NCBI RefSeq assembly: GCF_016859285.1
Contig: NW_024401807.1
Location: 361,156 to 425,155 of the forward strand
DNA from: Xiphias gladius
Lineage: Eukaryota > Chordata > Actinopteri > Istiophoriformes > Xiphiidae
Direction: 5' to 3'
Length of the DNA: 64,000 bases
Each line of letters starts with the position of its first letter. Position 1 is the first letter of the stretch. Position numbers and translations under genes: made by a program. Below are positions 34,988 to 61,669 of this stretch, in pieces. The notes beneath the pieces were generated by a model. It saw nothing but the letters and a program-made list of their open reading frames with translations, did not search any database and had not been told where the DNA came from.

Positions 34988-36229
34988 CAAGTATTGAATT
35001 TACATTTGGTGGCTGCTAATGGGAACTCTCAATATACAGTCCAAAGAGGTGTCGATGCAAGTGAAGGATGCCATCATTAGGCTGAAAAAAAAAACAAAAA
35101 CCTATCAAACAGATCGCAGAAACTTTAGGAGTGGTCAAATTACCAATTTGGGTCTTAAAAAGAAGGAATGCAATGCAAGCTCGGCATAACCAAAAGGCCT
35201 GGAAGACCATGGAAGACAACTAAAACGGATGATCGCAGAATTTTCTTTCCTTGGTGAAGAAAATCCCCTTCACAACATCTAGCCAGTTCAAGAACAGGCA
35301 TATCATTGTCAAAGTCTACAATCAAGAGACACCTTCATGAATGTAAATACAGGGGTTTATTACAAGGTGCAAATCACTGCTAAAACTCAAGAACAGAGAG
35401 ACCCAGAAAAAATATTAAAAAAAGCCTGCACAATTCTGGAACGAGACTCTTTGCAGAGATGAAACCAAGATTGACATGTACCAGAATGATAGGAAGAGAA
35501 GAGTATGGAGAAGCTCATTATCCAAAGCATACCACATCATCTGTCAAACATGGTGGAGGCAGTGTTATGGCATGGGCATGTTTGGCTGCCAACAGAACTG
35601 GGTCACTGTTGTTTATTGATGATTTGACTGCTGATATTAGTATCAGGATGAATTCTGAAGTGTACAGGGCTATACTATGTGCTCAGATTTAGCCAAATAC
35701 TGCAAGGCCAATAGGACAGTTCCTCATAGTACATATGGATAATGAGCCAAAAGATACTGCAAGCAACCCAAGAGCTTCTCAAGGCAAAGAAATTGAATAT
35801 TCTTCAATGATCACGTCAGTCACCTGACCTCAACCCAACTGAGTATGCAGAAAGACCCACAAACAAGCAGCATATGAAGGCGGCTGCAGTAAAGGCCTGG
35901 CAAAGCACATCATGAGAGGCAACTTGGCATTTGGTAATGTCCATTGTAGTAGACTTCAGGCAGTCATTGGCTGCAAAGGATTTATATTCTAGTAATAAAA
36001 ATAATCCTTATATTTATAATTATGTTGGTTTGTCCAATTATTTTTGAGTCTCTGAAAATGAGGGACTATGCATAAAAATGGCTGTAATTCCTAAACGGTT
36101 CATTGGATATTTTTGTTAAACCCCTTGAATAAAACTGAAAGTCTACACTTCAATTACATCTTGATGGCTTTGTTTCAAATCCCCTCTGGTGGTGTACAGA
36201 GGCAAAATTACGAAAATTTTGGCACTGTC
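34988..36229 (+). mobile_element. Tc1-like transposon (copy 2 of the family at 5306-6595)
   Basis: Same order as copy 1: 'tacatttggtggctgctaat', 'caaagaggtgtcgatg', 'agcatcaga'-like regions and the same right inverted repeat out to 'ggcactgtccaaa'. The left inverted repeat is missing. The transposase is broken; frame 35459-35692 contains [20 protein letters not shown] and [11 protein letters not shown] of the DDE domain. Confidence 0.85.
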
Positions 36230-37880
36230 CAAAGTGAAAAGGCTACAGTGGGACCTAAAGAAGCTGTGGCCTGTTCTGACAATCCTTTGACGTCTGCATT
36301 TCTTATACAAAAAAAAAATGTTACCTCACACTCATGGATGTTAACATTCAGTTCTATAGCTCTAAGCAAATGCTGTCTGTGTCTGAGTGTGCTTGAAAGA
36401 GATAGAGTTGATAAGCTGTATATGGCACCAGTTTACAGTGGTGTAACAGGTGTATTCCAAGGCTTCTAAAGCATTTGTAGTTAGATTAACTTCTTTTTCT
36501 GACTATTGCAAGCAGTTTGAGCAGGCCTTTCTTCTGGAGCCAAACAATTAACTCTAACACTGACTTTTCAGTTTCATTCACATAAACTTATATAAAATTA
36601 GTTGCCTATGCAAACCCATCTTTCTGTGCAATGCACATGAAATGTTACCTTATCGACTGGTTTTCCAGATGGGTGCTAACATGTGCACTAACATTATTGT
36701 GAAAATACAGGCAGAGGAAGAAGAAAAGAGAACATGCTTCTGCTGTTCACTCGACAGCTCCCCCTTCAGTTGCACTAGTCTATGAAGTGGTTGCATCGAA
36801 TTATACTTATTGAGAATCTGTAATAAAATTGCTTTCAAGTTAATGATGGTGGAGCTTGTTAATAATTGTAACATTCTTTTCCATTCTGAAATCCAGTCTT
36901 TGTTCTCTGGTCGGAGCAGAAGATAAATGAACACCTGACCAGAGAAAACACTCCAGCTGCTGTAAATCGCATAGGTAACCAGCCAGCTGTTAACTAGCTA
37001 GTGATGTTAACCTACTTTTTTTTAGGTGGTTAGTAAGCAAGCAATACTTAACAGTTCTCGCAATGGGTTACTTGGTAGCTATTTAGCCTTTATTGGTAAT
37101 TTGTATGAAAAAAACAAACACACAAATTCAATAGCTAACTTTGTAGACAGTTTTTAAGAAATAATAAACTAAAATTATTGCTCTAAACATAGCTTGAATA
37201 TTCATATATAAAGTTGGCCAGTCCTAGGTGACTAACTAACAGATGTCATGGAGATAAGGATTTTCAGTAGTCACTAGACCATAATTGTATTGATTAACTG
37301 CTTTCATTACACTTATATTCACTAATAACTATAATGTCAATTTTGCAGCTTATGTGGAGTGGGGGAGCAAGTGCTAGTGTCAGTGCTAGCAATGGAGGGG
37401 AGGCGTAAGTGAGCATAGCATACAAGATCCTGGAGAAGTCTAACTTTAGAAAAAAGGATGGATAGACAGACAGAGAAGCAGTACCCCCCTTACCTGATGT
37501 ACGTTCTTGTTCATGACATCACACATACACTAGAATTACAAAACAATAGATAGATTTACACAGTTTGAGTAATATATAGAGTAAAATGCAATAATGCTTT
37601 TGTCGTTATTCTCTGGTAGTGCAAATTATACAAGACACCCAATTAATTCAAGGGAACATAGGCCGACTATGCTATCAGGCAGACCACAGCTGATATCTAG
37701 TTGTGAGTAAAGTATTTATTCACACAATGTCTGGGCAGTTGCTCTAACTATAGTCTCTTCACAAACAAATACTCATTGCATATAAAAATAAAGTCAAAAC
37801 AGTTTGTTTACAGTCACAAGGGTTGTACATTTCATATTCACAGTTAATATTAATATCAGTCTGATATTGTGTAACTAGTT
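36230..37880. other. Non-coding stretch
   Basis: AT-rich. The minus-strand frame 36650-36934 has no family resemblance. No exon with supporting splice sites was recognised. Confidence 0.5.
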
Positions 37881-37889
37881 CAAATTATT

Positions 37890-38544
37890 TCAATTATTAT
37901 TTGTAGCTTTGACAAAGGCCAAGAAGCCATTCAGAGAAAAAATTATGAAGTGGAAATCCAAAGCAGAGAGCCTGCAAAGCCAATTTGAAGAATTTATGGC
38001 AGATAATCCCCCCCCCCACTCCCACGCTGAGAGCCCTCGTCTCAATCTGTCTCTTTGTCCTTCTTCTTCTGCTCCTTGTCCCCAGTAGCACATAGAACCA
38101 TCCTCGGGCTGGCTTCTTGAACTTCCCCTTCTCCTTCCCCTTCGCTGACTTCTCCCTTCTGTCTTTCCCTCCACTATTCTCCTTTTTCCTCTTGATTTTC
38201 CCATCTTTCTTCGCATTTTAGACTCTGCGATGTCTAAGGAAATATCTTCATTTCCCTCCTGCCCAATCTCATTTTTGACGGTGACACCTTTCCCCGCTTC
38301 CCGACGCTGTGAGGACCATTCCACCATTGATATGCCGGGACAATGTAGCGCACAGAGTGGTGCAGATGCCGCCCAGGAGCAACTTGTCTATCTGCAACAC
38401 AGCAGCTCTCAATATGACCAAGAGTTTCTCCAGCTCCTGTGACCAATGGTACAGCGCTCCGCAGCACAGGACCGTAAGGATATCGGCCCAGTAGAGAGCC
38501 GGTATAAAGTCTTTGGTCAAAGTCCTTCCTGCGGACCTGGTCAC
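37890..38544 (-). CDS. Unrecognised overlapping open frames at the edge of the CpG-rich block
   Basis: Two minus-strand frames overlap. 38269-38544 (91 codons) has an Leu-rich, helix-like sequence (ELEKLLVILRAAVLQIDKLL). 37890-38327 (145 codons) carries a very basic run (KMRRKMGKSRGKRRIVEGK) and a pyrimidine-rich coding strand. CpG frequency rises sharply here. No family is recognised. They may be the first genes of the virus-like segment or chance frames in skewed DNA. Confidence 0.35.
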
Positions 38545-38899
38545 CTCTAAACCTGTGTTTAGAGCTTCATGTTTTATGATTATAACAAATAATGAAGGAA
38601 CAAAATGTTTGTATATATTGGAAATTTGCTGACTGCCTCACCTATTCTCTTTTGCAGAAGAGCGGATGTCTAAATGTGCGAAAATGTGACCGCTTGCTGG
38701 AAACGGGTTGCTAAGCTACATGTTTTGTCTAACCTCCGGTTGCTGTATGCTCTGAACAGACAAAAGGAGGTGTTGCTGAGTGCGGTTGAGTGTGTGTGTG
38801 TGTGTGTTTGTGCAAAGACATGTGCTTACTCCACAGACCTGAGCGAGAAGACAGGAAACAGAGAAACAACTGAGGAAGCCACGTCTGAGCAACTAATTT

Positions 38900-39110
38900 T
38901 GCGTCTCAAAAATAATTGTACGCTTATATATCCTGGGCGAGGGAGAGACAGTCAGACTTCGTGAACTGAACCTTGTTGGCACTAGGGATAGACGACAGCC
39001 CAGAGCTCTGTAACCATCATTTTTGCTTTTAAATAAATATATTTGAGGATTCATCAGCTCTCCTGTCAACTTCATTTTGAACACGCAGAGTTGTGTTTAA
39101 TTTGAGCAAC
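38900..39110 (+). promoter_or_regulatory. LTR-like promoter / poly(A) module
   Basis: Plus strand: a TATA box in 'cttatatatcctgggcg' at 38925-38941, then 'aataaatatattt' near 39032, a spacing seen in U3-R-U5 of retroviral LTRs. No primer-binding site was recognised after it, and its mate was not found. It could also be a promoter within the virus-like block. Confidence 0.3.
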
Positions 39111-39179
39111 AAAACGACTTCTCCGACAATGCATAATCACTGATCTGAAAGTGGGCCTGCTGACAGGTCCGTTTGTTGG

Positions 39180-39974
39180 TTAACAGTTGCACGCGAGAGA
39201 GTGCGTTGATTGAAGTCCAGCTCCCACAATACGCATGTTCCCCAAACTGCGTCTGCTGGGAAGGACAGAGATCTCCCCGTCTTCGCTGCGACATTGCACT
39301 TGCTCCAGGGTTAGCCTGCTCTGCTCGTGGAAGGCCTTGAAAGCCAGCGGAGCCCCAAGTGCGGACAACGTCCTGCTTGCCAACTTGGAGGTGAGAGTCT
39401 CATTTTCCAAGAACGAGGTAGAGCCCATGGTGTACAACGACGAGACGGGTGGTGGTGTGGACGTACCAGTTCATATTGACGTATATCCTTGACACGATTG
39501 TACCGTGGTGGTATCCGAGAACCATGTCCCACGCGAAAGGGTACGTCGAGTAGCACCCTGCAATCTCAGGAGGCGAGATCAACTTCACGAGATCATCATG
39601 ATCAGCATTTTAGCCAACGGTGCTCTGGCTAAAACGCTGATCTTATTCACCGTGTGGCCCTTCACGTCTGTGTACATGTCGGAAAGGTGTTAAGCGATAA
39701 TAAAACCGTAACTGTCTCCGCTGTGCATGTATATGACTCGGAGAACAACATAATATGTACCTGGGATCACACAGGGCTCGACGACTATGCGAAAGACCCC
39801 GTTGGCCCCTGGTTCTTTCAGAGTTACAGACATCGGTATCCGTTTCTCTATATCGAACATTTGCACCCAGACGTACTCCACTTGACTTATAGTGTATAAG
39901 TCGTCGAACATTACGGCCATGTGCCGGGTGCCGAGCTCCAGTTGCCTCGTTGATGGGGCTCCATTTTCAGCCAC
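39180..39974 (-). pseudogene. Broken gene of unknown, virus-like origin
   Basis: Read from 39974: 94 open codons containing HMAVMFDDLYTISQVEYVWV, a stop at 39690, about 35 further open codons in the same frame to a second stop, then apparently coding sequence shifting between the other minus-strand frames down to 39180 (39400-39588, then 39180-39437). At least two stops and two frameshifts. Codon-like composition and CpG content are unlike the AT-rich introns. I recognise no family; a capsid-type protein is only a guess. The breaks are described but not repaired. Confidence 0.5.
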
Positions 39975-40026
39975 TCTACGGTCGAGGGAATAGGTTGGCT
40001 GGTCGCTAATATAGAGTTGAAGTAGT

Positions 40027-40032
40027 TTATTA
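40027..40032 (-). promoter_or_regulatory. Putative poly(A) signal after the two intact minus-strand frames
   Basis: AATAAA on the minus strand about 105 nt past the stop at 40135, as expected for a compact viral transcription unit. Confidence 0.4.
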
Positions 40033-40134
40033 CTTCCAGTGTGACAAAAAAAGACGTCTTTGAAAGTCTATAGTATAATAACCAACAAATTGTACACAAA
40101 CATAAACACACATTATATACAAGTTTATACAGAG

Positions 40135-40510
40135 TCACTCGTCATCGATGATAGTCTTAGGTCTATCGACAGTCTCGTCTTCGAATAAGACCTGATGTCC
40201 TTCTTTGTCTCCTACTCTCACATCACCTTTGATGGGAGCCAATTCTGAGCCCTGTTCCTCCCAATCCGAACACCAGTCGTCGTCCTCGTCGGATTCGTCT
40301 TCATTGCACTCCTCTGTCCCGATTCCGACAGAGTAGCTGCGAGTGGTATTGCATTTGAAGGCATCCAGAAAATTGCTCAGATGCTCGCTGTCGTCGAGTT
40401 CGATGATGTTCTCGGCTAGCTCAATCATGCAGTTAGCAAACACGGAGGGATCTGCGAACTCTTTGAGAGGCATTTTCGGCTGCGAGGCTAAGGTCCCGAC
40501 TTCGTCCATG
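40135..40510 (-). CDS. Acidic unknown protein (~124 aa), intact
   Basis: Starts MDEVGTLASQPKMPLKEFAD; the start chosen is the ATG at 40510. The middle is strongly acidic (EECNEDESDEDDDWCSDWEE). The end is TIIDDE then stop. The start lies 2 nt after the stop of the preceding frame, a packing typical of viruses. No homologue is recognised. The acidic patch suggests binding to a basic partner, but function is unknown. Confidence 0.6.
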
Positions 40511-40511
40511 C

Positions 40512-40835
40512 TCACCAATTCCTTTCAAGCGATAGCCATACACTCATAATTTCTTCGGGGACCTTGTCTTTTCTGCCGGGCTTGGCGGTGATGTTTATGT
40601 ACAGGGAGAGATTTTTGTTATTGCCGGTCAGATGCTGACAAGTCTCTTGTATACTCCGCCAATCCGGGTCGACATTCTTGGCGCCGTAATGTTTGCAGAT
40701 GATCCCTTTCAGCACGGCCAAGGGGATATTGTGGATGGCTCGGAACAATGCAAAATACTCTTCCACCTGGCAAGGGCTGCTGTTAGTGGCGGTGGTGGTA
40801 TCTACCATAGCCTCGCCGTCTTGATATGAGGGCAT
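40512..40835 (-). CDS. Unknown protein (107 aa), intact
   Basis: Opens MPSYQDGEAMVDTTTATNSS, then a likely folded region (EEYFALFRAIHNIPLAVLKG, then CKHYGAKNVDPDWRSIQETC). Ends at a TGA (40512-40514) immediately followed by the next frame's ATG. Fully open with balanced composition and frequent CpG, so a real recently active gene is plausible. No family recognised. Confidence 0.6.
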   Translation of the reverse strand: MPSYQDGEAMVDTTTATNSSPCQVEEYFALFRAIHNIPLAVLKGIICKHYGAKNVDPDWRSIQETCQHLTGNNKNLSLYINITAKPGRKDKVPEEIMSVWLSLERNW

Positions 40836-40920
40836 CTATCGGGTAGATCAGGAATGTCTATCCTTGGTATATCAGAGACTTTTGGACACGCAGACTATAC
40901 AGTGTGAGTAGAGTGTTTTT
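40836..40920. promoter_or_regulatory. 85-bp divergent intergenic spacer, possible bidirectional promoter
   Basis: Separates the minus-strand frame starting at 40835 from the plus-strand frame starting at 40921. Contains 'ctatacagtg', a possible TATA-like element. Confidence 0.3.
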
Positions 40921-41397
40921 ATGTCTACTAGTACTTCAGAAAAAATGGATTGTTTGCATTTCACACAAGAGGTGTACATCTGTATCATTTCAGTGAATGA
41001 GCAAGTGTTGACAGTGCTAGTGCAGAGCGGCACGTTGATTGTGGGCGCAGCACAGCACGTACAGCCAAATTACATCTGCAATACGACATCTGTGTCGTAT
41101 CGTCTGCTGTGGTCCCTCCGCGGACAAGATTTTGACGATCGTCCATCGTACATCTACTTTATGCTCTCAGCCTCCCATACATCCAAGAGACCCCACGCTT
41201 CAACAGAAGCTGCGAACAGCCGAAGATCCAAAGAGTTGGGGCTGCTTGATGATGTGAACGAGAGCGACCTCCCCATTGACTCCCCCGCGGCCAGCTCCTG
41301 CTCCTGCTCCTTTTCATCTTCACATTTCACGTCCGAAGGCCTGACACCCAGCTTGTTGGCCAGCAGTACCCCTTACGCTGTCGAGACTCTCGTGTGA
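40921..41397 (+). CDS. Unknown protein (158 aa), plus strand, virus-like block
   Basis: Opens MSTSTSEKMDCLHFTQEVYI; first half beta-rich and ordered-looking (VNEQVLTVLVQSGTLIVGAA), second half Ser-rich and low-complexity (PAASSCSCSFSSSHFTSEG). Its right part, from about 41170, lies opposite minus-strand sequence that also looks coding, so either the plus frame is real only in its first ~85 codons or the two genes overlap. No family recognised. Confidence 0.45.
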   Translation: MSTSTSEKMDCLHFTQEVYICIISVNEQVLTVLVQSGTLIVGAAQHVQPNYICNTTSVSYRLLWSLRGQDFDDRPSYIYFMLSASHTSKRPHASTEAANSRRSKELGLLDDVNESDLPIDSPAASSCSCSFSSSHFTSEGLTPSLLASSTPYAVETLV

Positions 41398-43040
41398 GCA
41401 TGGTCTCGTTGACCGTGAGTGAGGCGTCTGGTTTTCTCCCAAACAGGCTGTAGCTAAGGTAATGCCCGATGTGTTCAAGACTGTCACCGGCATACAGTGG
41501 AAAATGTGCCAGGCAAACCAGATTCTAGCTTTCTCATCATATCCCTGTTGTTGTACTGGATGGTATTGTGTCTCCTGTTGAACTGGCTGAATCCGAACAG
41601 AGTGCTCCTCCAAAAATTGTTCCACATGCTCAGGGTCTTCTCCAGGTAGGCCACGCTGACCGAAGACGGGTAGTTGCGTGCGAGTTTAACTTCTGATCTG
41701 AGCTCGGTGATGGGCTTGTGGGACGTGATGTGGCCCCGGTCGCTAGCCTGTTCCAGCTGCCTCACCTCCGATCCAAGGCCAACCGAGGATGCCTGGTCAC
41801 CTCCCCAACAAACTGTCTCATGAACATAATCTCAATTTGGCCGCATTCTGGCCGAAACTGTCGGGCTGCCGGTCGCTGGCCAGGAAGCAGGAGATGTTGT
41901 CAAGCAAAGGTTTACCAAACATGTTACCTGTGGCCGAAAACCCTACACGCTGCTGCTCTCCGCGAAATGAAAGCATTACGTCCGCCAGGTGCGTCAGAGA
42001 CAACCGGTCTATGCCCTACCCTTAGGTGAGCTCTCTTGGGCAGCGAAGATACATGGGAAACCCCTGTCGAGCAACTATGGAACGTGGCCATCAATGGGGT
42101 CCTCTACAGACATATCGAGATGTGTCTGTAGAGGACCCCATTGATGGCCGCTATCACCAGATCTGTTTCCGTATCAAGCCCTGCACTTGGGTATGACCGG
42201 ACCCCTGCCGTGCTCAAAGGTTTTCATCACACCCCATAGGGCAACAGTCACCATCTTGAGCTTGGTTTCTTTGATGGGGTCTCGTACCACCATGACATCC
42301 TGCCTGACCCAGTCTCGGACAATCTTGCACAATACCTGCGTCTTGGGGACCGAATTGCTCATCAGCAGTTTCAGCGTGTTCACCAGTTGCTCAATTGTTC
42401 AACACCGAGGGCAGAGCCCGTTCATGAGCCTCTTGTTCCTGCACAGCTTCAGACACGGCATTCGGCGGGCTAAGGCCATCCTGCACTGTCCTGAAGCAAG
42501 GTTCGTGTTGCTTGTGTTTGACTCTGCCGACAAGCTCACGTAGGGCTACGTGACCGGATCTCCATGGCCTCTCGTGCGTCTCAGTTCTCCTCCGTTTACA
42601 TCGGTTCGGCTTATTATCATCGTCCTCTCCTGGCTTCCTGTACTTATCTCCGTGGACAACTGGGTTAGATGAGACAAGGTTAGTGACGGCCACTTTCCCG
42701 GACAACCCCAAGCAAGAGAAAGCAAGAGCTCCATGGAGAGCGCGGGGCTGAACGTGTTGACGATTTCCTCTATCACGATGTTCAGCTGCAGAACCCCGCT
42801 CACGTATATCCAGACCCCGACGTCTCGATAGAGGGGATCAGCCTGTACCGCTTGTAGTCAACGTCATCGGACTGACCCCATAGGTGTTTACAAAACTCTC
42901 TTTTTTGGGAGCTCTCTGGGAGCTGTAAGTGCTCGCTCTGTTTTACAAAGCGGCTTCGGCTAGCTCCTTCTCGCAATGGGTCAAGTGTTCCCTGGACACA
43001 CTCATCATAGGTCTCGCCATCTCCCTTAAGCCCGCTCACG
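41170..43040 (-). pseudogene. Large broken gene of unknown, virus-like origin
   Basis: A run of minus-strand frames follow one another with shifts and stops, together spanning about 1.9 kb: 42800-43039, 42546-42803, 42391-42711, 42174-42383, 41818-42003, 41484-41765, then shorter stretches to 41170. Examples are GASRSRFVKQSEHLQLPESS and ARNYPSSVSVAYLEKTLSMW. Each is coding-like and non-repetitive, as for one decayed gene of 500-600 codons. A 27-bp inverted repeat (42086-42149) interrupts it. A structural viral protein is a guess. The breaks are left unrepaired. Confidence 0.45.
42086..42149. repeat. Perfect 27-bp inverted repeat, 10-nt loop
   Basis: Arms 42086-42112 and 42123-42149 are exact reverse complements. 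The right arm is in a coding-like frame on the minus strand; the left arm is its inverted copy. Confidence 0.96.
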
Positions 43041-43149
43041 CAGCATCAGGCCTTGGTCCTGGTAAGCGTTGATGTCTAGTTAATGATACCAACATACTTT
43101 CTCGCATACTTACAAAGTTCCCAACTAGGAAGTAGACCCGAGAAGATGT

Positions 43150-43403
43150 TCTGGATGCTGTTCAGAGCCTTGTGTTGTCTGTGTAGCAACAGACAGAGCC
43201 TGAGTAACCTAAACCAAGATGGTTATTATTACTATCAGGATGACGCTTTGGGCGACAAAGACCTATCCTTCACCAACGAGTCGTCCTTCCAGGACAGATC
43301 GATCGACATGAACGTAAACTGCATTTGGGTCGGAGGAAGCCCTACCAACCAGATCCCCAGTTTGCATGTGGACGGGGTTCAGATGGAGCATCATCATAGT
43401 TAA
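43150..43403 (+). CDS. Small unknown protein (~84 aa), plus strand
   Basis: The second in-frame ATG (43150) gives MFWMLFRALCCLCSNRQSLS. The hydrophobic, Cys-rich N-terminus could be a membrane anchor or palmitoylated. The rest is acidic and Tyr/Asn-rich (QDGYYYYQDDALGDKDLSFT), ending HHHS. The open frame starts at 43083. No family recognised. It lies between the virus-like block and the retroviral gag remnant. Confidence 0.4.
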
Positions 43404-43472
43404 GGTTTTGTACGCTTCAGAAGTTAAATGTGCAAATATTCTTACTATTGGTGTGTTTTGTATTTCCTTAAG

Positions 43473-44500
43473 CTATTCTGTGGCTTGGTTCACTAACTCT
43501 AAGTGTTTCTGTGTTTGTGTAGGGGTGTTCTCATGTGTGGTCGATTGTGCAAGTTTCTTCCTGACCCTTCGTGGCCCCCTCAGCCAGTCATTCGTCCTCT
43601 TCCTCAAATCGTTTGCCCTTTCATTTTGGACAGTCCCTGGTCCAATGTCCCATTTGACCACACATGTAGCAGGCATTATCTTTTCTTCCCCCACACGCAT
43701 TGTGTTACTCTGGCAAGATAATCAGATCAGCTTTCTTCAGGTTGTTGGACGGACTCTGCCAATTTTCTCAGTTCGATTGTTTGTGGGAATGCTTTTCTGC
43801 TCCATCAGTCTGAAAACAGCATTGCTGCAAGCTTGATTTCCCCAGGAGTTGTTGTCACTTATTCATGTCACTCTTGGTCTCATTTCTCCCATGGGGAAGT
43901 TTTCTTCCACACTCAACCAACTGAGGCCCAGTATGTGAATCATCAGGTGGCTCAGTTCCACTGTGGTGGGCTTGAAAGCGGTTATAATTTCTGTCAAGTT
44001 GTGACAGAATCTGTCCTCATTGTCTCTGGGATGGCCCAAGTCTTTTGCCACCACCTTCATTTCATCCAATGTCCATGGCCCGTGCACCAGGACAACTTCA
44101 ATATCTTGTCCCACCATTTCTAGCATGGGGAGGTTGAGTACCCCAGGGCTGTTGGGGGACGGAGGAGTGGGTTAAAGGGATCCTCCATGTCTGGTGCTCT
44201 CAGTATTATGGCCTGCACATCTCTGGGAGCTGTTCCCAGCTGGGGGGTCCTCCATGCCTCCCTCTGCACTAAGCAGTTGCAGATCCTCTTCTCATTGGGT
44301 CTGTTGATTCAGGCGTTTGTGCTGCTGAGGACCGTCCAGTTCGTGAGCTGCATATTTCAGACACTGAGACACTTTGTTATAATCCCTACCTTTCCCTGCC
44401 TGACAAGTTTCTTTGCCCCTCATTGGGGCTTCTGTGTTCCAACTGTTCCATGCCTTCCATTCAGCTTTAAAGGCTTATTTACAACAGCCAATACATCCCT
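43473..44500 (-). pseudogene. Endogenous retrovirus gag remnant
   Basis: Minus strand. One C-x2-C-x4-H-x4-C knuckle (CYMCGQMGHWTRDC, 43630-43671) is followed almost at once by a TGA, the usual place of a gag stop. Upstream, frame 43863-44126 (HGPWTLDEMKVVAKDLGHPR) resembles a capsid domain. Other frames are broken by stops and shifts. A single-knuckle gag fits gamma- or epsilon-like fish retroviruses. No protease, RT, integrase or env follows, so it is a fragment. Confidence 0.7.
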
Positions 44501-45930
44501 TCCTTTTTCTTTCATCCTTTTTCTCCTACATCCTTTCCTTAAGCTGATTTAATTGTCTAACACAAACTTCCTCCCTCTGGGAACCCAAAACGAGTTACCC
44601 ATATGTGCAACCGGACACAACTGGACACAACTATCAGCATAATTTTTTTTCCTCTTTTTCTCTTTTTCTTTTCTACTCTGACAATTTGTCAGGTGCCAAA
44701 CCTCCCCAGCCAGTTCGATGGCCATGTTTGGCCCATGTATTTTCTAACAAAAGAACAAGTCTGTTTTTTATACACAATAGTGAGCATGTAAAGGAGGGGC
44801 TGTCACACAAAGGTTAAAAGTTCATCAACTTTTTACTATCTCATCTTAACTGCAACTTCCTGATACCTAGATGTCAAATGAAAAGAGGAACTGGGTTATC
44901 AGTACACTTCCTCAAACTTGTACAAGAAGTTAATACAAGACATTAATACATTGATCAAAGTTATATTTTGTCATAACAGTCAGCATTTGTGATTTGAGAA
45001 TGCTGAATCCAAGTCATACAATCATTAGCCAATTGTACAATAAAAGAAAAAAAAAACTTCAGTGAACATCTGAGATTTGATTTTTAAAAATGTATTCATT
45101 TCATCATTTTGGTCTTTATGTTATACACCATGACAAAAAATAACACGTACTGAAAAAATACAAACTGAAGCCAATAATACACCCAAGAGCTTAACCAGCT
45201 TTAAAATGAATAAATGCAAAAAAAAAAAAAAGTATGAACTGTTAATTTTTGCTTTTCGAAGACGCTACCCTGTGATCAGACCTCTCTATTAATTCTGAGA
45301 TCTATGGTTCTATACTGAATACATATCTGTCTTTGCTCTCTGCTATCTCTAGTTTCTGAGTATAATCATTTGAAGCACATGAATTTGTAAAATGCATTTT
45401 ATTGGTTAAGGTTTATTATACAGTCCTGCAGATCACAAGCTGTGATCGCAAAGACTTGATTGATAAACCTAAGGACCTCATGGAGGCACAAACGACAACT
45501 AAACTCAGCTGTTTAAAGCTGAATCCAAATGTCTCCCTCCAACAGCCGACAAGATCCTCTGCCACATTTAGGGGAAAAAACACCCTGACGTTTGGCAAAG
45601 ATTGCAGTGGACCAAGCCTAGTGTGGACTTGGGGATGGTCACCACCTTCCTCTAAAGGGTAAAGACAATTATTCGTTTTTGTTAAACTCAATACATATAT
45701 AATCTCAAATTTAACAAAGTGGTGAGAAACAATGAACAATGAAGTAAAACTACAAATAACAAAAACAATTGAGTTCCTGCAACTTGAATGAATTGTGAAT
45801 TTCTTGGTCAAATTAGACATTAATGAAAAATAAGGGCTTGTGTATTGTGTTGAAAGGATTTGAAAATCACATATAACCATATCTTTAATTAGGATTTCCA
45901 TAACAGTTTAACACGTTTTTTAGAAGTTAA
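44501..45930. other. Non-coding, possibly remains of the retroviral leader/LTR
   Basis: Minus strand shows AATAAA twice near 45396-45415, preceded by a GC-richer stretch (45420-45660), which could be an LTR or a terminal exon. No primer-binding site was identified. The 161-codon minus-strand frame 45416-45901 has no family resemblance. Confidence 0.3.
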
Positions 45931-46049
45931 AGTTCACAACACCTGGTATTTGGAGGCGGTCTCCCATTCAGGTACTACCCAGGACCGATCCTCATTAGCT
46001 TCCTCGATCACACAAAATCTGGTGCATCCAGATTTGTATGGCCATTAGC
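45931..46049 (-). rRNA. 5S rRNA gene copy A, diverged
   Basis: Minus strand, 119 nt, from GCTAATGGCCATAC-like 5' end to a ...GGTGTTGTGAACT 3' end. 'GGAGACCGCCTCC' stands where the box C GGGAGACCGCC belongs. Several substitutions in the box A region ('AAGCTAATGAGGATCGG') suggest a pseudogene. A TATA-like 'ctatatatc' lies about 25 nt upstream. Confidence 0.8.
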
Positions 46050-46541
46050 ACCACTGTCTGATATATAGAGGCTCTTTGTACATTCAATAAACACTACGAT
46101 CTTCATACTGCTAAATACGGTAATCAGTGATTTATATTCGTATAATACTCAACAAATCCTAATGCAAGACAAAAACCAAATATGAATGAATCCATCCAAC
46201 ACATGATCTCTTCATGACCACAGTCTGATAAAGCATGTAACTCTGTTTTATATTTTTATATAAACTTAATTTTCCAGACCTCTTTACTGGTGACATGTGC
46301 GTTCAGAATAAGGAGAACCTCCAATACATATACCCCCATATACAGCAGCAGTGCAGACTTTATTCTGGTAAATTCTCAACGCCTAAAATATGATTTCTGA
46401 AAGTGACATAAATTACGATTGAAGTACATACTAGAGCATGAAATACACTGCAAAAAAAAAAAAAAACATAGTGTTGGGTTTCCTCTGTCCAGTCTCACTA
46501 CATGAGCAACATCGCCTTCTGTTGATGAAAGATGGGTATGA

Positions 46542-46620
46542 AAAGCTTACAACAACTCATTCCCGGGTGTTATCCCATTCAAGTACTAATCAGGCCTGAC
46601 CTTCATTAGCTTCTGAATCA
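46542..46620 (-). pseudogene. 5S rRNA copy B, truncated
   Basis: Only the 3' two thirds remain ('GCCTGATTAGTACTTGAATGG' and a GTTGTAAGCTTTT end, split here for length). The 5' third and promoter are missing, so it cannot be transcribed normally. Confidence 0.8.
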
Positions 46621-47073
46621 TTAATAATGATTAATATTGCTCTAATAATCAACAAATCCAAATGCAAGACAATAACCAAATGTGAACTGATGCATCTAAC
46701 ACCACATTTCTTCATAACCAGAGTGTGATAGAGAATTTAACTCTGTTTTCAAAGTTAAAAGTAAATTTTTATCCGAAATTTACTAAAACAGTCATCCACA
46801 CTTATTATTGGTGACATGTTCGTTCGGGAGAAGAAAACCCATAATATATATAATCATTTATCAACCCGCAGAAATGCAGACTGCATACATGTAACTTATC
46901 ATCGCCAAGGTTTGATTGGTGAAAGTAGTATAAAATACAGTAGAAGTACACAATGGAGCGTGAAGAATACACTGCTAAACAAAACACGATAAAGCGGGGT
47001 TTCCCCTGATTTTTAAGTTCTGTCTCAACTACATGAGGAGCATCGCCCTGTGATGATGAAAAATGGGGATAAA

Positions 47074-47193
47074 GACCTTAGAGAATCTGGTAATCTCAGG
47101 TGGTCTTCCAGCCAAATACTAAACAGGCCCAACCCTGCTTAACTTCCGCGATCTGACGAGATCCGGTGTATCCAAGTTGGTATGGCCATAAGA
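47074..47193 (-). rRNA. 5S rRNA gene copy C, diverged
   Basis: 120 nt. Retains 'GATCTCGTCAGATCGCGGAA' and 'AAGCAGGGTTGGGCCTG'. The last 20 nt are altered (TACCAGATTCTCTAAGG). Probably a pseudogene. Confidence 0.82.
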
Positions 47194-47670
47194 AGGCATA
47201 TCTGACGTACACAGCCTCTTTATACATGCTAAAAGATCATTAACAATTCTCATACCGTTAAATACAGCTATCAATGATTAATATTCCTCTAATAATCAAT
47301 AAATGCAAAATCCAAAAAAGAAACACACCACATTTGAATTAATCCATCTAACATGGCATTTTTTCATAACCAAAGTCTGATCAACCATGTAGCTCTGTTT
47401 TAAAGGTTAAAAGTCAGTGTTATTCCGAAATGTAATAAAAAATACATTCATGATCCAGACCTCTTTACGGGAGACATATTCATTCAGAATAAGGAGAACC
47501 CAAATTACAATACTGTAAGTGACATAAAGTACAATAGAAGTACACAAAGTAGCATGAAGTACGCACTGCAAAACAAAACTCCATAGTGTGCAAGTGGCCC
47601 CTGTTTTTACAAGTCCTGTCTCAACTACATGAGCAGAATCGCCATCTGCTGATTACAGAAGGAGATGAAA

Positions 47671-47792
47671 AGTTTACAGCACCTGGTATTCCCAGGCGGT
47701 CTTCCATCAAAGTACTAACCAGGCCTGACCTTGCTTGACTTCTGAGATCTGACGAGATGAGGGGTATATCCAGGTTGGTATTGGCCGTAAGC
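47671..47792 (-). rRNA. 5S rRNA gene copy D, best conserved
   Basis: 122 nt, starting GCTTACGGCC and ending CCAGGTGCTGTAAACTT. It keeps GACCGCCTGGGAATACCAGG and GGCCTGGTTAGTACTTTGAT. One inserted A (CCAATACC) and changes in box A (AAGTCAAGCAAGGTCA) may reduce function. Confidence 0.88.
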
Positions 47793-48055
47793 AACCGTGT
47801 TTGACATAATCGGGCTCTTCATACATGCTTAAAAGAACACTAACAGTTGTCATACCGTTAAATATGGATATCAATTATTTATATCTCTTTAATACCCAAC
47901 AAACCGGGAAAGGCAACAAAAAAACAAATGTGAATTAGTCCATCTAACAAGGCTTTTCTTCATAACCACAGTCTGACAAAGCACGTGACTCTGTTTTAAA
48001 AGTTAAAAGTTAGTGTTTTTCTAAAATGTATTAAAATAGACATCCATCATCCAGA

Positions 48056-49262
48056 TATGATATAGTTACTCTAGATGGCATTGCCCTGGCCTCCAGCACC
48101 ACTGTTTGGAATCTCGGCGTTATCTTTGATCAGGAAATGTCCTTTAACTCTCACATAAAACAAACTTCAAGGACTGCCTTTTTTCACCTACGTAACATTG
48201 CAAAAATCAGGCACATCCTATCTCAAAAAGATGCAGAAAAACTAGTCCATGCTTTTGTTTCCTCTAGACTGGATTATTGTAATTCCTTATTATCAGGCTG
48301 TCCCAACAAATCTTTAAATACTCTCCAGCTGATCCAGAATGCTGCATTGCGAGCACTGACAGGAACTAGGAAAAGAGATAACATTTTTTCTGTGTTAGCT
48401 TCTCGGCATTGGCTCCCTGTAAATTTAAGAATAAAATCTAATATCCTCCTCCTCACCTACAAAGCCCTTAATGGTCAGGCACCATCATATCTGAAAGCGG
48501 TCATAGTGCCCTATTACCCCACTAGAAAACTGCACTCCCAGAATGCACGCTTGCTAGATTCTCCAAAAGTAGAATGGGAGGCAGAGCCTTCAGTTATCAA
48601 GCTTCTCTACTGTGGAACCATCTTCCAGTTTGGGTCTGGGAGGCAGACACCCTCTCCACATTTAAGAGTAGGCTTAAAACCTTCCTTTTTGATAAAGCTT
48701 ACAGTTAGGGCTGGCTCAGGCTTGTCTTGAACCATCCACTAGTTATGCTGCTATAGGCCTAGACTGCCAGGTGACTTCCCATGATGCACTGAGCTCCTCT
48801 CTCCTCCTCTTCCTCCACTTGCATGCATTCATGAGGCATAAATGCTCGTTACTAACTTGACTTCTTCTCTCTCCCGTAGTTTTGTGCTTTCTGCAGGTAT
48901 TTCTGCCCCTGCTGCTAGAGAGTCTGGATCTGTGACTGCAAACCACATACTGCCCCAATGATCCTGCTCAACACCCTCTGCTTCAAATATTATGATTATC
49001 ATCTATTATTATATTTAGTTTTATAAGTACTATTATTCACCCTTTTATTATAATTATTACTTTTATTATTAGTCTCATTATTGTTACACATCTTTATGGT
49101 ATACGTCTACTGTGCTATGTCTCCCCCGGCCTCTCTTTTCTCCCTCTCTCTCTATCTCTCTCATTCAACCCAGACAGTCGGGGCAGATGGCCGCCCCCCA
49201 TGAGCCGGTTTCTGTTGAAGGTTTCTACCTGTTAAAAGGGAGTGATTGATGATTTTTTCACC
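48056..49262 (+). mobile_element. L2-like LINE 3' end inserted in the 5S array
   Basis: Plus-strand frame 48137-48730 carries the C-terminal RT region of L2/CR1-group LINEs: HAFVSSRLDYCNSLLSGCPN, then LQLIQNAALRALTGTRKRDN and LHWLPV-like (RHWLPVNLRIKSNILLLTYK) and ALNGQAPSYL. A frameshift follows; the 3' end has 'ctcccccggcctctctt'. Only the 3' 1.2 kb is present, typical of 5'-truncated insertion. Confidence 0.88.
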
Positions 49263-49744
49263 AACAAAAGAAGCAGGCTCTTTATACATGCTAAAAGATC
49301 ACTAACTGTTCTCATACCGTTAAATACACTAATCAATGATTTACATTTCTCTAATACGCAACAAATTAAAAATGCAAGACATATATCAAATATGAATTAA
49401 TCCATCTAATACGACATTTCATTGTAACCACATTCTGACAAAGCGTGTAACTCTAAAGTTAGAAGTTAATTTTTATCCGAAATTTGTTAAAACAGACATC
49501 CATAATCCACAGTTATTTATGGGTGACATGTTCATTTAGGATAAGGAAAACCCACAATACATGTACTCATTATCAACCGGCAGCAGTATGGCCTTTATAC
49601 TGGTAACTTCTCAATGTCTAAAATGTAATTGCTGAAAGTGAAGTAATAACAGAAGTACACAATGGAGCATGAAGTACACTTTGCAAAACAAAACACAATA
49701 AAGTGAGCAGCATCACCCTGTGCTGATGAAAAATGGGGCTGAAA

Positions 49745-49863
49745 AACTTACACAACCTAGTATACCCATGTGGTTTTCCATCCAAGCACTCACCAGGCAT
49801 GACCCTGCTTAGCTTCCGAGATCAGACAAGATCAGGCGTACCCAGGTTGGTGTGACTATAAGC
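49745..49863 (-). rRNA. 5S rRNA gene copy E, diverged
   Basis: 119 nt. Box A region AAGCTAAGCAGGGTC is perfect, with GATCTCGGAAGC just upstream. The box C region (GGATGGAAAACCACATGGG) and the terminal stem are changed. Confidence 0.86.
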
Positions 49864-55073: not shown

Positions 55074-58000
55074 GGTACGTATCTCGAATGTTGTCTGCAA
55101 GGACGGAAGAGTCTTCTTTCTAGCCCCATTCGATATCCTTCGCCGCAGCCTCCCCTCACCCTTTGTCTCACTTCTATTACTGTCGAGTTCCATCTATTGC
55201 TTTGCCTGGGACTGAGTTGAGCTTTGTTCAAAAACAGATATTGTTTCCTTTCAGGCCGACTGACGAGCATTTAATTAACCTAAATACGCATATGGAAGGG
55301 AGAGGGGGTGCCCTGTTAGGCTAATGAAAAAGTTTAAGAAAATACAGAGTGATTTCACACCAATCATTCAACGATAAAGTGAGGAATGCTTTTTTCGTTC
55401 CTCTTGTAACTTTGGTTCCAGCAGACCTTCTTTCAGTGATTAATGGTGGCTAAATATTACAGACTGGGGGTTGTTAGCTATGCCAGTTGAAACCTAACAG
55501 AGGGGTATACTGAGATTTCGACCACTCAATTAGATGTTCTTGTACAAGATGTGGGTTCACGGCATCTGACCTTTTATTAGATTTTAAAATGTGTAGTACC
55601 GTAGGTGCATCTCATAAATTTATTACGACATATTAGGTTTTAGTATGCAGAGACCCAACGAGTAGCACTTACTGAATTCAATAGTCAAGCCAGTGCTGAA
55701 GTTTGGGTAATAGCATTGACTTTAAAAAACCTATCAAAAAATTTTTCTTAAGTCCAAATTCATGTTATAGAATTTCTGTCCTGATACATTTTCTACAGGG
55801 AACGAGGACTTCTGAAGTCAGCAACACTACCCCAACAAATAGCACTTACTGCTTTTAGATGTCAAGTCAGTGCTCGAATTAGGGTACTGTGGTGAAAAAA
55901 TTGATGCACTTAGTTAGTCATGTGAACATGATGGCAAAACTGGCAGTTCATACATTTGTCAAAGAACTCACAACCAGGAAAAACCCAAAGAGAAGCACTT
56001 ATGTACAAAAGAATTGTGAGTGGCTCTATTTGAATTGATATGAGTTGGATTCCCATAATAGTATTGCTTCCAGTGCATCCACTTGCTTTTGTCAATGAAA
56101 ACTGCCCCAACGAGTAGCACTTACTGAATTCAACAGTAAAGCCAGTTTGGTTAATAGCATTGACTTTAAAAAACCTATCAAATTGATTTTCTTCAGCCAG
56201 ACTTCATGTTATAGAATTTCTTTCCTGATACATTTTTTTAAGGGGAACAAGGACTTCTGAGGTCAGGAACACTACCCCAACAAATAGCACTTACTGCTTT
56301 TAGATCTCAAATCAGTGCTCGAGTTAGGGTACTGTGGTGAAAAAATCGATGCACTTTGTTAGTCATGTGAAAATGATGGTAAAACTGGCAGTTCATACAT
56401 TTGTCAAAGAACTCAAAACCAGGAATACCCCAAAGGGAAGGACTTATGTACAAAAGAATCGTGAGTGGCTCTATTTGAATATATATGAGTTGGATTCACA
56501 TAAGAGTATGGCTTCCACTGCATCCACTTGCTTTTGTCGTGAAAAACTGCCCCAACGAGTAGCACTTTCTGAATTCAATAGTCAAGCCAGTGCTGAAGTT
56601 TGGGTAATAGCAGTGACTTGCAAAAACCTATCAAACTGATTTTCTTCAGCCAGACTTCATGTTATAGAATATCTTTCTTGATACATTTTTTTAAAGGGAA
56701 CAAGGATTTCTGAGGTCAGCAACACTACCCCAACAAATAGCACTTACTGCTTTTAGATCTCAAGTCGGTGCTCGAGTTAGGGTGACGTTGTGAAAAATTG
56801 ATGCACTTAGTTAGTCATGTGAACATGATGGCAAAACTGGCAGTTTATACATTTGTCAAAGAACTCACAACCAGGAAAACCCCAAAGGGAAGCACTTATG
56901 TACAAAAGAATCAAGACTGTCTCCATTTGAAGTGATCGGAGTTGGATGCCTATAAGAATATGACTTCAAGTGAATTCAGTTCCTTTCTCAATTAAAATTC
57001 CCCATTCAGGAAGCATATTATCGACTTTATGTTACACTAATGACTTACGAAATGTGGCTTCCACTGCATTCACTTGCTTTTATCAACAAAAACTGCCCGA
57101 ACAAGATAGCACTTACATAATTCAATAGTCAAGCCAGGGCTGAAGTTTGGGTAATAACATTGACTCTAAAAAACCTATTTAACTGATTTTCTTCAGCCAG
57201 AATTCATGTTATAGAATTTCTGTCCTCATACATTTTTTCAAAGGGAACGAGGACTTCTGAAGTCAACAACACTACCCCAACAAATAGAACTTACTCCTTT
57301 TAGATGTCAAGTCAGTGCTCGAGTTAGGTTACTGTGGTGAAAAAATTGATGCACTTAGTTAGTCATGTGAAAATGATGGCATAACTGGCAGTTCATACAT
57401 TTGTCAAAGAACTCAAAAGCAGGACAACCCCAAAGGGAAGGATTTATGTACAAAAGAATCGTGAGTTGCTCTATTTGAATAGATATGAGTTGGATTCCCA
57501 TAAGAAAATGGTTTCCAGTGCAACCAATTGCTTTTGTCAATGAAAACTGCCCCAACGACTAGCACTTACTAAATTCAATAGTCAAGCCAGGGCTGAAGTT
57601 TGGGTAATAGCAGTGACTTGCAAAAACCTATCAAGCTGATTTTCTTCAGCCAGACTTCATGTTATAGAATTTCTTTCTTGATACATTTTTTTAAAGGGAA
57701 CAAGGATTTCTGAGGTCAGCAACACTACCCCGACAAATAGCACTTACTTCTTTTAGATCTCAAGTCGGTGCTCGAGTTAGGGTGACGTTGTGACAGATTG
57801 ATGCACTTAGTCATGTGAACATGATGGCAAAACTGGTAGTTCATAAGCTTGTCAAAGAACTCACAACCAGGACAACCCCAAAGGGAAGCACTTATGTACA
57901 AAAGAAGCATGAGTGTCTCCATTTGAAGTGATCAGAGTTGGATGCCTATAAGAATATGACTTCAAGTGAGTTCAGTTGCTATTTTCAATTAAAATTCCCC

Positions 58001-58754
58001 ATTCAGGAAGCATATTATCGACTTGATGTTACACTAATGACTTACGAAATGTGGCTTCCACTGCATTCACTTGCTTTTATCAATGAAAACTGCCCCAACG
58101 AGTAGCACTTACTGAATTCAATAGTCAAGCCAGTGCTGAAGATTGGGTAATAGCATTGATTCTAAAAAACCTATCAAATCGATTTTCTTAAACCAGAATT
58201 CATGTTATAGAATTTCTTTCCTGATACATTTTCTAAAGGGAACAAGGATTTCTGAGGTCAGCAACTCTACCCCGACAAATAGCACTTTCTGCTTTTAGAT
58301 CTCAAGTCGGTTCTCGAGTTAGGGTGATGTGTTGACAAATTGATTCACTTAGTTGGTCATGTGAACATGATGGCAAAACTGGTAGTTCATAAGCCTGTCA
58401 AAGAACTAAAAACCAGGAAAACCCCAAAGAGAAGCACTTATGTACAAAAGAATGTGATCAGAGTTGGATGCATATACGAATATGACTTCCAGTGAATTCA
58501 GTTGCTTTTTTCAATTAAAACACCCAATTCAAGAAGCACATTCTCAACCTAGTTTAAGAGCTTTTACTTACAGAAACATCTCAATATATGAATTTGATTC
58601 TAGAAACATGTAGCTTCAGTTGAAATCTCCAGTATTTGTAATGTACAACCAACCCAACTAGTAGCATTTACCAAGTAAAAATAAAAATATCAGTACTCAA
58701 GTTGAGCCAATACTACATCATTTCTGTAAGAACTCCACGTCACTCATGACTTAC

Positions 58755-58816
58755 CTTATCGTCCAGACGTTTCTTTCTGGGACTTTCTTTGTGGTGTCCC
58801 GGTCACAGTGGATTTT
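58755..58816 (-). other. Exon-like module X2 in the tandem array (copy 1)
   Basis: Minus strand, 62 nt between acceptor 'ggtgctag' and donor 'AAG|gtaagt'. One frame is open through it (HCDRDTTKKVPERNVWTI). Repeated at 62555-62616 with the splice sites kept. Confidence 0.4.
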
Positions 58817-59539
58817 CTAGCACCAATTTTCCCATCTTAAGTACTGAATGGAGGCAATTCAACCCAAATAAACCTTCATTTTCGTGAAGTTTCATTGGTC
58901 TTGATAACGGTTGTAAAAGAATCACACCTTTTGTCCTCCAACAAAAACCCATCGTCGCCATTCATTCACATTCATGCAAGCCTTTAGAGAAATTGATGTG
59001 TGGACAATTAGACACGTATGAGTTGTCATTGTGCAACTGATTACAACATGCTAGCGTCCATTTGCATCTCTACAAGTGTTTCGAAGCAATTAAAAGAAGG
59101 AGGACATATTAAAACCAAATGGCACATTTTACCAAAAGCTACAAAAAAGCTTCCAAGACATCGGGTATATTTGCGAGCGTTTAAAAAAATAAACCTACAT
59201 AAAATCTACGCAGAGAATGAGTAAAAAATGCAATCCTACTTTCATTGCTCTTCCCTTAATTTTTTCCAAGAGATGTGATCAATGTTGCAGTGAGCCGCTT
59301 CCTGAGGTTTTACAATAAACTTCCTGCTTAAATAACTAAAGAAAGAGAGTTCATTAAAACTTCCTCGGCAAAAAGTACTTGCTTTACTGAGAACCAAACA
59401 CAGTGTTTTTCTTAGTGTAATAGTAATGACCTTAGATCTTTATGAGAAAAAGTTCATTGTGGTTTGCAATTTATATTCAATCCAGTGAGATATGCCTTAA
59501 CCATGTGGCAGATTGTTTTGATGTTTGAAAGTTACTTAC

Positions 59540-59606
59540 CTGAAGTGTATCTCTTGCTGAAATTTCTCTATGTTGTAGAAGTAATTTGTAGATTCCTTTA
59601 CCAGCT
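59540..59606 (-). other. Exon-like module X1 in the tandem array (copy 1)
   Basis: Minus strand, 67 nt between acceptor 'tatccacag' and donor 'TTCAG|gtaagt'. One frame is open with coding-like content (LVKESTNYFYNIEKFQQEIH). Repeated at 63343-63409, where the donor is 'gtaggt'. No family recognised. Confidence 0.45.
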
Positions 59607-61632
59607 CTGTGGATATCTTACCAACCAAGGGAACCCCAAAGAGAAGCACTTATGGTGAAAGGAATCATGAGTGGCTCTACTTGAGGTGATAAGAGGTGGA
59701 ATCCCATAAGAGTATGGCTTCCAGTGCATCCACTTGCTTTTATCAATGAAAAATGCCCCAACGAGTAGCACTTACTGAATTCAATAGTCAAGCCAGTGCT
59801 GAAGTTTGGGTAATAGCATTGATTCTAAAAAACCTATCAAATCAATTTTCTTAAACCAGAATTCATGTTATAGAATTTCTGTCCTGATACATTTTCTAAA
59901 AGGAACGAGGACTTCTGAAGTCAACAACACTACCCCAAAAAATAGCACTTACTGCTTTTAGATGTCAAGTCAGTGCTCGAGTTAGGGTACTGTGGTGAAA
60001 AAATTGATGCACTTAGTTAGTCATGTGAAAATGATGGCAAAATTGGCAGTTTATACATTTGTCAAAGAACTCACAACCAGGACAACCCCAAAGGGAAGGA
60101 TTTATGTACAAAAGAATCGTGAGTGGCTCTATTTGAATAGATATGAGTTGGATTCCCATAAGATAATGGTTTCCAGTGCAACCAATTGCTTTTGTCAATG
60201 AAAACTGCCCCAACGAGTAGCACTTACTGAATTCAATAGTCAAGCCAGGGCTGAAGTTTGGGTAATAGCAGTGACTTGCAAAAACCTATCAAGCTGATTT
60301 TCTTCAGCCAGACTTCATGTTATAGAATTTCTTTCTTGATACATTTTTTTAAAGGGAACAAGGATTTCTGAGGTCAGCAACACTACCCCAACAAATAGCA
60401 CTTACTGCTTTTAGATCTCAAGTCGGTGCTCCAGTTAGGGTAGCGTTATGACAAATTGATGCACTTAGTTAGTCATGTGAACATGATGGCAAAACTGGCA
60501 GTTTATACATTTGTCAAAGAACGCACAACCAGGAAAACCCCAAAGGGAAGCACTTATGTACAAAAGAATCATGAGTGTCTCCATTTGAAGTGATCAGAGT
60601 AGGATGCCTATAAGAATAGGACTTCAAGTGAGTTCAGTTGCTTTTGATAATTAAAATTCCCCATTCAGGAAGCATATTATCGACTTGATGTTACACTAAT
60701 GACTTACGAAATGTGGCTTCCACTGCATTCACTTGCTTTTATCAATGAAAACTGCCCCAACGAGTAGCACTTACTGAATTCAATAGTCAAGCCAGTGCTG
60801 AAGTTTGGGTAATAGCAGTGACTTGCAAAAACCTATCAAGCTGATTTTCTTCAGCCAGAATTCATGTTATAGAATTTCTGTCCTCATACATTTTTTTAAA
60901 GGGAACAGGGATTTCTGAGGTCAGCAACACTACCCCAACAAATAGCACTTACTGCTTTTAGATGTCAAGTCAGTGCTCGAGTTAGGGTACTGTGGTGAAA
61001 AAATTGATGCACTTAGTTAGTCATGTGAAAATGATGGGAAAACTGGCAGTTTATACATTTGTCAAAGAACTCACAACCAGGACAACCCCAAAGGGAAGGA
61101 CTTATTTACAAGAGAATCGCGAGTGGCTCTATTTGAGTGATCAGAGTTGGATGCCTATAAGAATATGACTTCAAGTGAGTTCAGTTGCTTTTGTCAAAGA
61201 ACTCACAAACAGGACAACCCCAAATGGAAGTACTGTGTAAAAAAAGAATCATGTCCTCCATTTTTGAAGTGATCAAAGTTGGATGCCTATAAGAATATGA
61301 CTTCCAGTGAATTCAGTTGCTTTTCTCAATCAAAATTCCCCATTCAGGAAGATTATTCTCAACTTGATGTTACACTAATGACTTACGAAATGTGGCTTCC
61401 ACTGCATTCACTTGCTTTTATCAATGAAAACTGCCCCAACGAGTAGCACTTACTGAATTCAATAGTCAAGCCAGTGCTGAAGTTTGGGTAATAGCATTGA
61501 CTTTATAAAAACCTATATAACTGATTTTCTTCAGCCAGAATTCCTGTTATAGAATTTCTGTCCTGATACATTTTTTTAAAGGGAACAGGGACTTCTGAGG
61601 TCAGCAACACTACCCCAACAAATAGCACTTAC

Positions 61633-61669
61633 TGCTTTTAGATGTCAAGTCAGTGCTCGAGTTAGGGTA
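61633..61669 (-). other. Exon-like 37-nt module inside the monomers (example)
   Basis: Minus strand, acceptor 'tttttcaccacag' (excellent), donor 'AGCA|gtaagt', open in one frame (YPNSSTDLTSKS). The same module is present in monomers near 55880, 56320, 59985, 60985 and 63790. In others (56780, 57780, 58320, 60440, 62105) the acceptor AG is destroyed. Confidence 0.35.

What the first reader, a model, noticed from the sequence alone, without database searches (positions are those of the whole stretch)
38230..43403. CpG-rich, gene-dense virus-like block of unknown identity
Seen: within AT-rich, CpG-poor fish DNA, about 5 kb turns CpG-rich. It carries tightly packed frames: 40512-40835 and 40135-40510 intact with 2 nt between stop and start, a divergent plus-strand frame at 40921, and long broken frames at 41170-43040 and 39180-39974. 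None resembles a transposase, RT, integrase or host exon, and no splice pattern explains them. Inference: an integrated fragment of a DNA virus or large virus-like mobile element, recent enough to keep CpGs and two intact genes. I cannot name the group.
Basis: partly seen in the sequence, partly recalled or inferred. Interest (0 to 1): 0.88.

Follow-up and report, generated by a model that had tools for sequence, protein, structure and literature searches.

The report
Unidentified virus-like fossil in fish DNA
A 4.3-kb stretch of fish DNA carries tightly packed, partly broken genes that look as if they came from a DNA virus, but they match nothing we could search, so the virus cannot be named.

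Summary
Partly confirmed. A foreign-looking block exists but is shorter than claimed: 39129-43390 (4.26 kb). Its CpG observed/expected is 0.78 against 0.30 in the rest of the window, and its period-3 coding signal is strong (rank test p 7e-6). Two intact minus-strand frames (107 and 124 aa) lie 2 nt apart. The left part of the claimed interval (38570-39128) is an LTR of a retroelement with fuller copies elsewhere. The right edge abuts the gag of an older, CpG-poor endogenous retrovirus. Between them the block is single-copy in the 690.8-Mb genome by DNA search. The pieces searched gave no credible relative in Pfam, PHROGs, PDB sequences or IMG/VR; in the protein set only an identical and a near-identical entry appeared. 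Best reading: a decaying insertion from a non-retroviral, probably dsDNA, virus; group undetermined. A Teratorn-like alloherpesvirus is the likeliest named source but no test supports it. Contamination looks unlikely but reads were not available. Fold search was off and several genome searches did not complete. New member of a known kind; moderate interest.

The parts
39129..43390 (.). The virus-like block proper, single copy in the genome by DNA search
   Evidence: CpG o/e 0.78 against 0.30; single copy; period-3; edges from LTR and ERV matches
40512..40835 (-). Gene A, intact 107-aa frame; possible small DNA-binding protein (inference)
   Evidence: single-sequence model with helices then strands, mean pLDDT 56.7, too low to name a fold
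40135..40509 (-). Gene B, intact 124-aa frame with acidic middle part, 2 nt behind gene A
   Evidence: strongest period-3 of the window at 40132-40482; weak low-complexity match to an acidic XPC segment, E 0.038
39180..40067 (-). Gene C remnant, broken; strand less certain
   Evidence: Pieces 39690-40067, 39400-39609, 39180-39470; period-3 up to 4.0; plus frames score about as well in places
40921..41397 (+). P1, open 158-aa frame divergent from A across 85 nt; weak coding signal
41154..43045 (-). M remnant, broken: 12 stop-to-stop pieces of 55 aa or more in all three frames
   Evidence: period-3 up to 4.6 at 42238-42588
42086..42149 (.). 31-nt foldback (97% complementary, 2-nt spacer) inside M
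43083..43403 (+). P2, open 106-aa frame; 82 aa of it match an outside protein with one difference; its last 13 bases lie in the gag match
38570..39128 (+). Solo LTR of an RT/RNase H/integrase-coding retroelement; not part of the block
   Evidence: 15 genome rows, 8 nearly full-length; ends and flanks; Pfam of interiors
43391..44983 (-). Old endogenous retrovirus fragment: gag part 43391-44645 and LTR 44765-44983; not part of the block
   Evidence: 81-83% to C8 copy; domains of that copy; CpG o/e 0.24 in gag part

Best explanation
39129-43390 is a fragment of a non-retroviral, most likely dsDNA, virus genome captured in the germline of a teleost and now decaying. In the virus it would have been a compact cluster: genes A and B read as one unit from the minus strand with a poly(A) signal behind B, gene C behind them with its own TATA box, P1 divergent from A across 85 nt, M and P2 beyond. 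A may be a small DNA-binding protein and B an acidic regulator (both inferred from weak signs). The fragment most likely entered by end joining next to an older retrovirus remnant; an LTR element later landed at its left edge and left a solo LTR whose 5' side was rearranged. Today it is most likely a non-functional fossil, A and B surviving by chance or because the insertion is not old. Shown: composition, coding signal, gene packing, single copy by DNA search, neighbours. Inferred: viral origin, dsDNA type, route of entry, gene roles, present lack of function.
For: CpG o/e 0.78 against 0.30; period-3 p 7e-6; two intact frames 2 nt apart and a divergent frame 85 nt away; minus-strand AATAAA at 40031 and TATATAA at 40119, not tested against chance; single copy by DNA, and A and the 125-aa C piece single by protein, against a repeat family or host gene family; no acceptable Pfam match in the block pieces scanned; P2 has a near-identical protein from an outside dataset.
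Against: No homology to any virus: eight pieces in eight IMG/VR scans gave no relative, ten pieces in PHROGs gave none, and A, B and P2 found only an identical and a near-identical protein or nothing. These libraries cover animal viruses thinly. The longest frame is within what shuffles give. No viral terminal repeats or integration signature was found; both edges lie on retroelement sequence. M, P2 and PF00136 genome searches did not complete.
Confidence: 0.58

Rival explanations
1. Narrower version of the best reading (its probability is inside that one): the block holds lineage-specific, non-core genes of a Teratorn-like alloherpesvirus, a dsDNA virus group often integrated in teleosts.
For: Teratorn-like sequences were reported in at least 22 of 77 teleost species (PMC5822658, passages) and most integrated alloherpesvirus sequences of ray-finned fish were assigned to that lineage (PMC11089739, passages).
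Against: No alloherpesvirus gene was recognised; the block is single-copy whereas such elements are often multi-copy (PMC5822658); no alloherpesvirus proteome was at hand, and the DNA polymerase B family search did not complete.
Confidence: 0.15
2. An unknown non-viral mobile element, or cargo carried by one of the neighbouring retroelements.
For: Both edges lie at retroelement sequence: exactly behind an LTR 3' end and at a gag/protease junction.
Against: No copy of the block elsewhere; the other copies of both retroelements compared do not carry it; the genes lie on both strands; no transposase, RT or integrase match in the block pieces scanned.
Confidence: 0.15
3. A decayed host locus (rapidly evolving single-copy genes with CpG-island character) rather than a foreign insert.
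For: Single-copy host genes can be orphans, and CpG islands keep CpG; the libraries used hold few fish proteins, so a fish-only gene could be missed.
Against: The CpG-rich stretch is 4.3 kb with tightly packed frames on both strands, two of them 2 nt apart; A and the C piece have no second copy or exon elsewhere in the genome. No transcript or orthologue data were available.
Confidence: 0.15
4. Assembly artefact or contaminating free virus joined to the contig.
For: The window is the end of a 425-kb contig, while contigs named such as C4, C7 and C8 have 26-33 Mb; no related sequence elsewhere in the genome.
Against: Frame breaks and partial CpG loss in M are unlike a living virus; both edges meet retroelements with copies in this genome; the block ends 20.6 kb inside the contig.
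Confidence: 0.07

Closest known systems
Teratorn and Teratorn-like alloherpesvirus integrations of teleosts (PMC5601938, PMC5822658; passages read)
   Same: Compact viral genes inside teleost DNA
   Different: Those carry recognisable herpesvirus core genes, are often multi-copy and often linked to piggyBac; here there is a single 4.3-kb piece with no recognised gene
Adomaviruses, adintoviruses and adabscoviruses (PMC11071296; opening part, section 15 and passages read)
   Same: Small DNA viruses found in fish datasets, some with unrecognisable replication genes
   Different: They are defined by virion, replicase or integrase genes recognisable by search; none was recognised here, though direct comparison with their proteins was not possible
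Endogenous retroviruses and LTR retroelements
   Same: They make up 38570-39128 and 43391-44983, on either side of the block
   Different: The block itself has no RT, RNase H, integrase or protease match in the pieces scanned and is absent from the other copies compared

Membership tests
Endogenous viral element (non-retroviral) | Embedded in host DNA, flanked by host sequence | tested here: met
   Assembly joins the block to retroelement sequences with copies in this genome, inside a contig with miR-430; reads not available
Endogenous viral element (non-retroviral) | Homology to a known virus | tested here: not met
   libraries cover animal viruses thinly, so viral origin stays an inference
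Endogenous viral element (non-retroviral) | Foreign composition and compact gene packing (supporting, not defining) | tested here: met
Teratorn-like alloherpesvirus | Core genes: DNA polymerase, helicase, terminase, major capsid protein | tested here: inconclusive
   None recognised in the block; Pfam may not cover alloherpesviruses well (recalled); own-genome PF00136 search not answered
Teratorn-like alloherpesvirus | Linkage to a piggyBac-like transposase or its terminal repeats (frequent, not universal) | not tested
   No transposase matched in the pieces scanned, but terminal repeats of piggyBac were not searched for
Adomavirus / adintovirus / Maverick | SF3 helicase or PolB, adenovirus-like virion genes, adenain, or rve integrase | tested here: inconclusive
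   No such Pfam match in the block pieces scanned; broken genes were searched only in pieces
LTR retroelement | Paired LTRs with RT, RNase H and integrase between them | tested here: not met
   The block lacks all of these in the pieces scanned; the LTR beside it lacks its interior
Host gene family | Paralogues or exons elsewhere in the genome | tested here: not met
   A and the C piece match only themselves at E up to 1; M pieces and P2 not answered

The most novel reading that the evidence does not exclude
The block is a fossil of a vertebrate DNA-virus lineage with no described member: a divergent P1/A-B module and a large gene M, none related to known replicases or capsids. If so, it is a first genomic trace of an unknown fish virus family.
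Probability: 0.2. Interest if true: 0.8.

Novelty: new member of a known kind. Interest (0 to 1): 0.42.

Why it matters
The fish virus fossils in the papers seen here were found by homology to known viruses. A block recognised by composition and gene packing alone would be the kind of fossil that such screens miss, and its intact frames could serve as bait to look for a related virus in sequence archives. It also shows how an LTR and an older retrovirus can sit at both edges of a foreign insert.

Tried and rejected
Rejected as part of the block: the frames 38230-38442 and 38674-38964; the second lies in an LTR and the first has little coding signal. Segment 37881-38569 (GC 0.48, CpG o/e 0.50) is single-copy and may or may not be more of the insert; undecided.

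Weak Pfam matches set aside: Stork_head E 0.058 on 42174-42398; EIAV_Rev E 0.0016 and IRF-2BP E 0.17 on 43473-43721, which lies in the gag remnant; all three are below their cut-offs. PDB sequence matches were weak: gene B to an acidic XPC segment E 0.038, others E 0.89-1.5, none for A, P1 and the M piece 41484-41831. A 28-residue match of A to a Sporosarcina contig and one to a cyanophage clamp loader at E 0.3 were treated as chance. Block DNA against phage and plasmid records: no match. Rfam on 36-46 kb: only a 5S copy. Bacterial promoter/terminator scan: at chance level and not relevant. The single-sequence models of A (pLDDT 56.7) and of the C piece (40.9, strand-rich) are too poor to name folds. 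In one search the codon-position row for B was out of frame (my coordinate slip) and is not used; other rows there are not used as evidence either. The frame scores were trained on A, B and P2, so they are no independent evidence for those three. Paper searches (capped listings) showed no report naming such a block; one search was a side search on the host and is not used.
Full report
Setting. The window is teleost DNA: ten miR-430 precursors at 55.8-63.8 kb and four 5S rRNA copies. It is the last 64 kb of contig C467 (425,155 bp) of a 690.8-Mb assembly in 1298 contigs.

The observation. The CpG-rich block is real but narrower than described. CpG o/e is 0.84 (39129-39689), 1.07 (39690-40070), 1.06 (gene B), 0.75 (gene A), 0.79 (P1), 0.70 (41398-43045) and 0.64 (43083-43390), against 0.24 in the gag remnant to the right and 0.30 in the rest of the window. 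The period-3 signal peaks at 40132-40482 (7.6; mean of all windows 1.16); of the five best 351-nt windows of the 64 kb four lie in the block and the fifth overlaps its right edge; 9 of the best 20 are centred in it. Non-overlapping windows differ with p 7e-6. ATG frames of 100 aa or more are more frequent than in shuffles (5 against a mean of 1.36), but the longest is not exceptional: 19 of 200 shuffles match it. Frames A (107 aa) and B (124 aa) are intact and 2 nt apart.

Boundaries. A DNA search of 38000-43500 in the whole genome returned 18 rows: the window itself, 15 rows of one repeat that begins at 38578, one retroviral match from 43391, and the block's own palindrome. Eight of the 15 rows cover nearly the whole repeat. 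The repeat is an LTR: copies run from TGTT to GACA. On C338 two copies bracket an interior with RNase H and integrase matches above Pfam cut-offs; the C243 interior gives RNase H, integrase and RT-associated domains above cut-off and RVT_1 just below it. The C338 element has a 4-bp duplication GTAT and a solo copy on C4 has GTAA; solo copies on C7 and C22 agree at 3 of 4 positions (flanks). The window's LTR (38570-39128) has its normal 3' end but an altered start and no duplication (TTCA and ATGC agree at 1 of 4), so its left side was probably rearranged, while the block follows directly on the LTR's 3' end as target DNA would (inference). To the right, 43391-43694, 43697-44645 and 44765-44983 match at 81-83% a retrovirus on C8. 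Pieces of that copy match an RT-linked RNase H model above cut-off and protease, RT, RNase H and integrase models below theirs. The window copy stops close to where that protease frame begins, and the block starts there. Its CpG is much lower than the block's, so the block is probably younger than this retrovirus (inference; unequal methylation could mimic it).

Anatomy. On the minus strand: the M remnant (43045-41154; 12 stop-to-stop pieces of 55 aa or more in all three frames, not all need be coding, with a 31-nt foldback at 42086-42149), A, B, an AATAAA at 40031, a TATATAA at 40119, and the C remnant (40067-39180). On the plus strand: P1 (40921-41397), 85 nt from the start of A, and P2 (43083-43403). 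The poly(A) and TATA words were not tested against chance. The strand of C is uncertain because plus frames there score about as well, and P1 has a weak signal.

Relatives. Ten pieces were scanned against Pfam and ten (E up to 1), four more block pieces (E up to 0.01) and ten (E up to 10; some repeated). None reached a cut-off; the only matches were three weak ones. Ten pieces against PHROGs gave none. Eight scans of IMG/VR with eight different pieces found no relative. Three frames were searched in the 5.8-billion protein set: A finds one protein identical to itself (two contigs, longest 1113 bases; sources are not shown for proteins the window encodes), P2 finds one 82-aa protein with a single difference (two contigs, longest 2080 bases, source 'lgn'), and B finds nothing at E up to 10. 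The P2 hit shows that closely similar DNA exists in an outside dataset; which animal it came from is unknown. In the host genome A and the 125-aa C piece occur once by protein, and the left flank 37000-38575 occurs once by DNA.

Interpretation. Tight packing, divergent orientation, host-atypical CpG, and the lack of paralogues (two frames tested) and of transposon domains point to an integrated DNA-virus fragment. None of these is proof: homology to a virus, the defining evidence, was sought and not found in libraries that cover animal viruses thinly. I put 0.58 on a non-retroviral viral fossil, and within it 0.15 (absolute) on lineage-specific genes of a Teratorn-like alloherpesvirus, since such sequences were reported in at least 22 of 77 teleost species (PMC5822658, passages). 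The functional reading (A as DNA-binding, B as acidic regulator, A-B as one transcript) is inference from a low-confidence model, a low-complexity match to XPC and signal positions.

Limits. Broken genes were searched only in pieces.

Noticed in passing
55822-63798 (-): Cluster of ten miR-430 precursors, all on the minus strand.
   Followed up: no
45931-49863 (-): Four scattered 5S rRNA copies, bit scores 42.7 to 73.6.
   Followed up: no
42086-42149: Near-perfect 31-nt foldback with a 2-nt spacer inside the broken frame M; folds far better than 200 shuffles, z -11.4. Perhaps a templated repair scar.
   Followed up: partly
2898-3239 (-): Exon-like piece matching Rcd1 (Pfam PF04078, E 2.5e-11, above cut-off).
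   Followed up: no
36000-36233: Part of a high-copy repeat: 40 further rows, nearly all 88-90% identical, from 3840 first-look candidates, so a lower bound.
   Followed up: no
L020 1471-9608 (G000:C338): Three copies of the LTR on one 12-kb contig: two bracket an interior with RNase H and integrase matches, and the third begins a repeat of the contig's own start at about 98% identity. Could be a tandem copy or an assembly duplication.
   Followed up: partly
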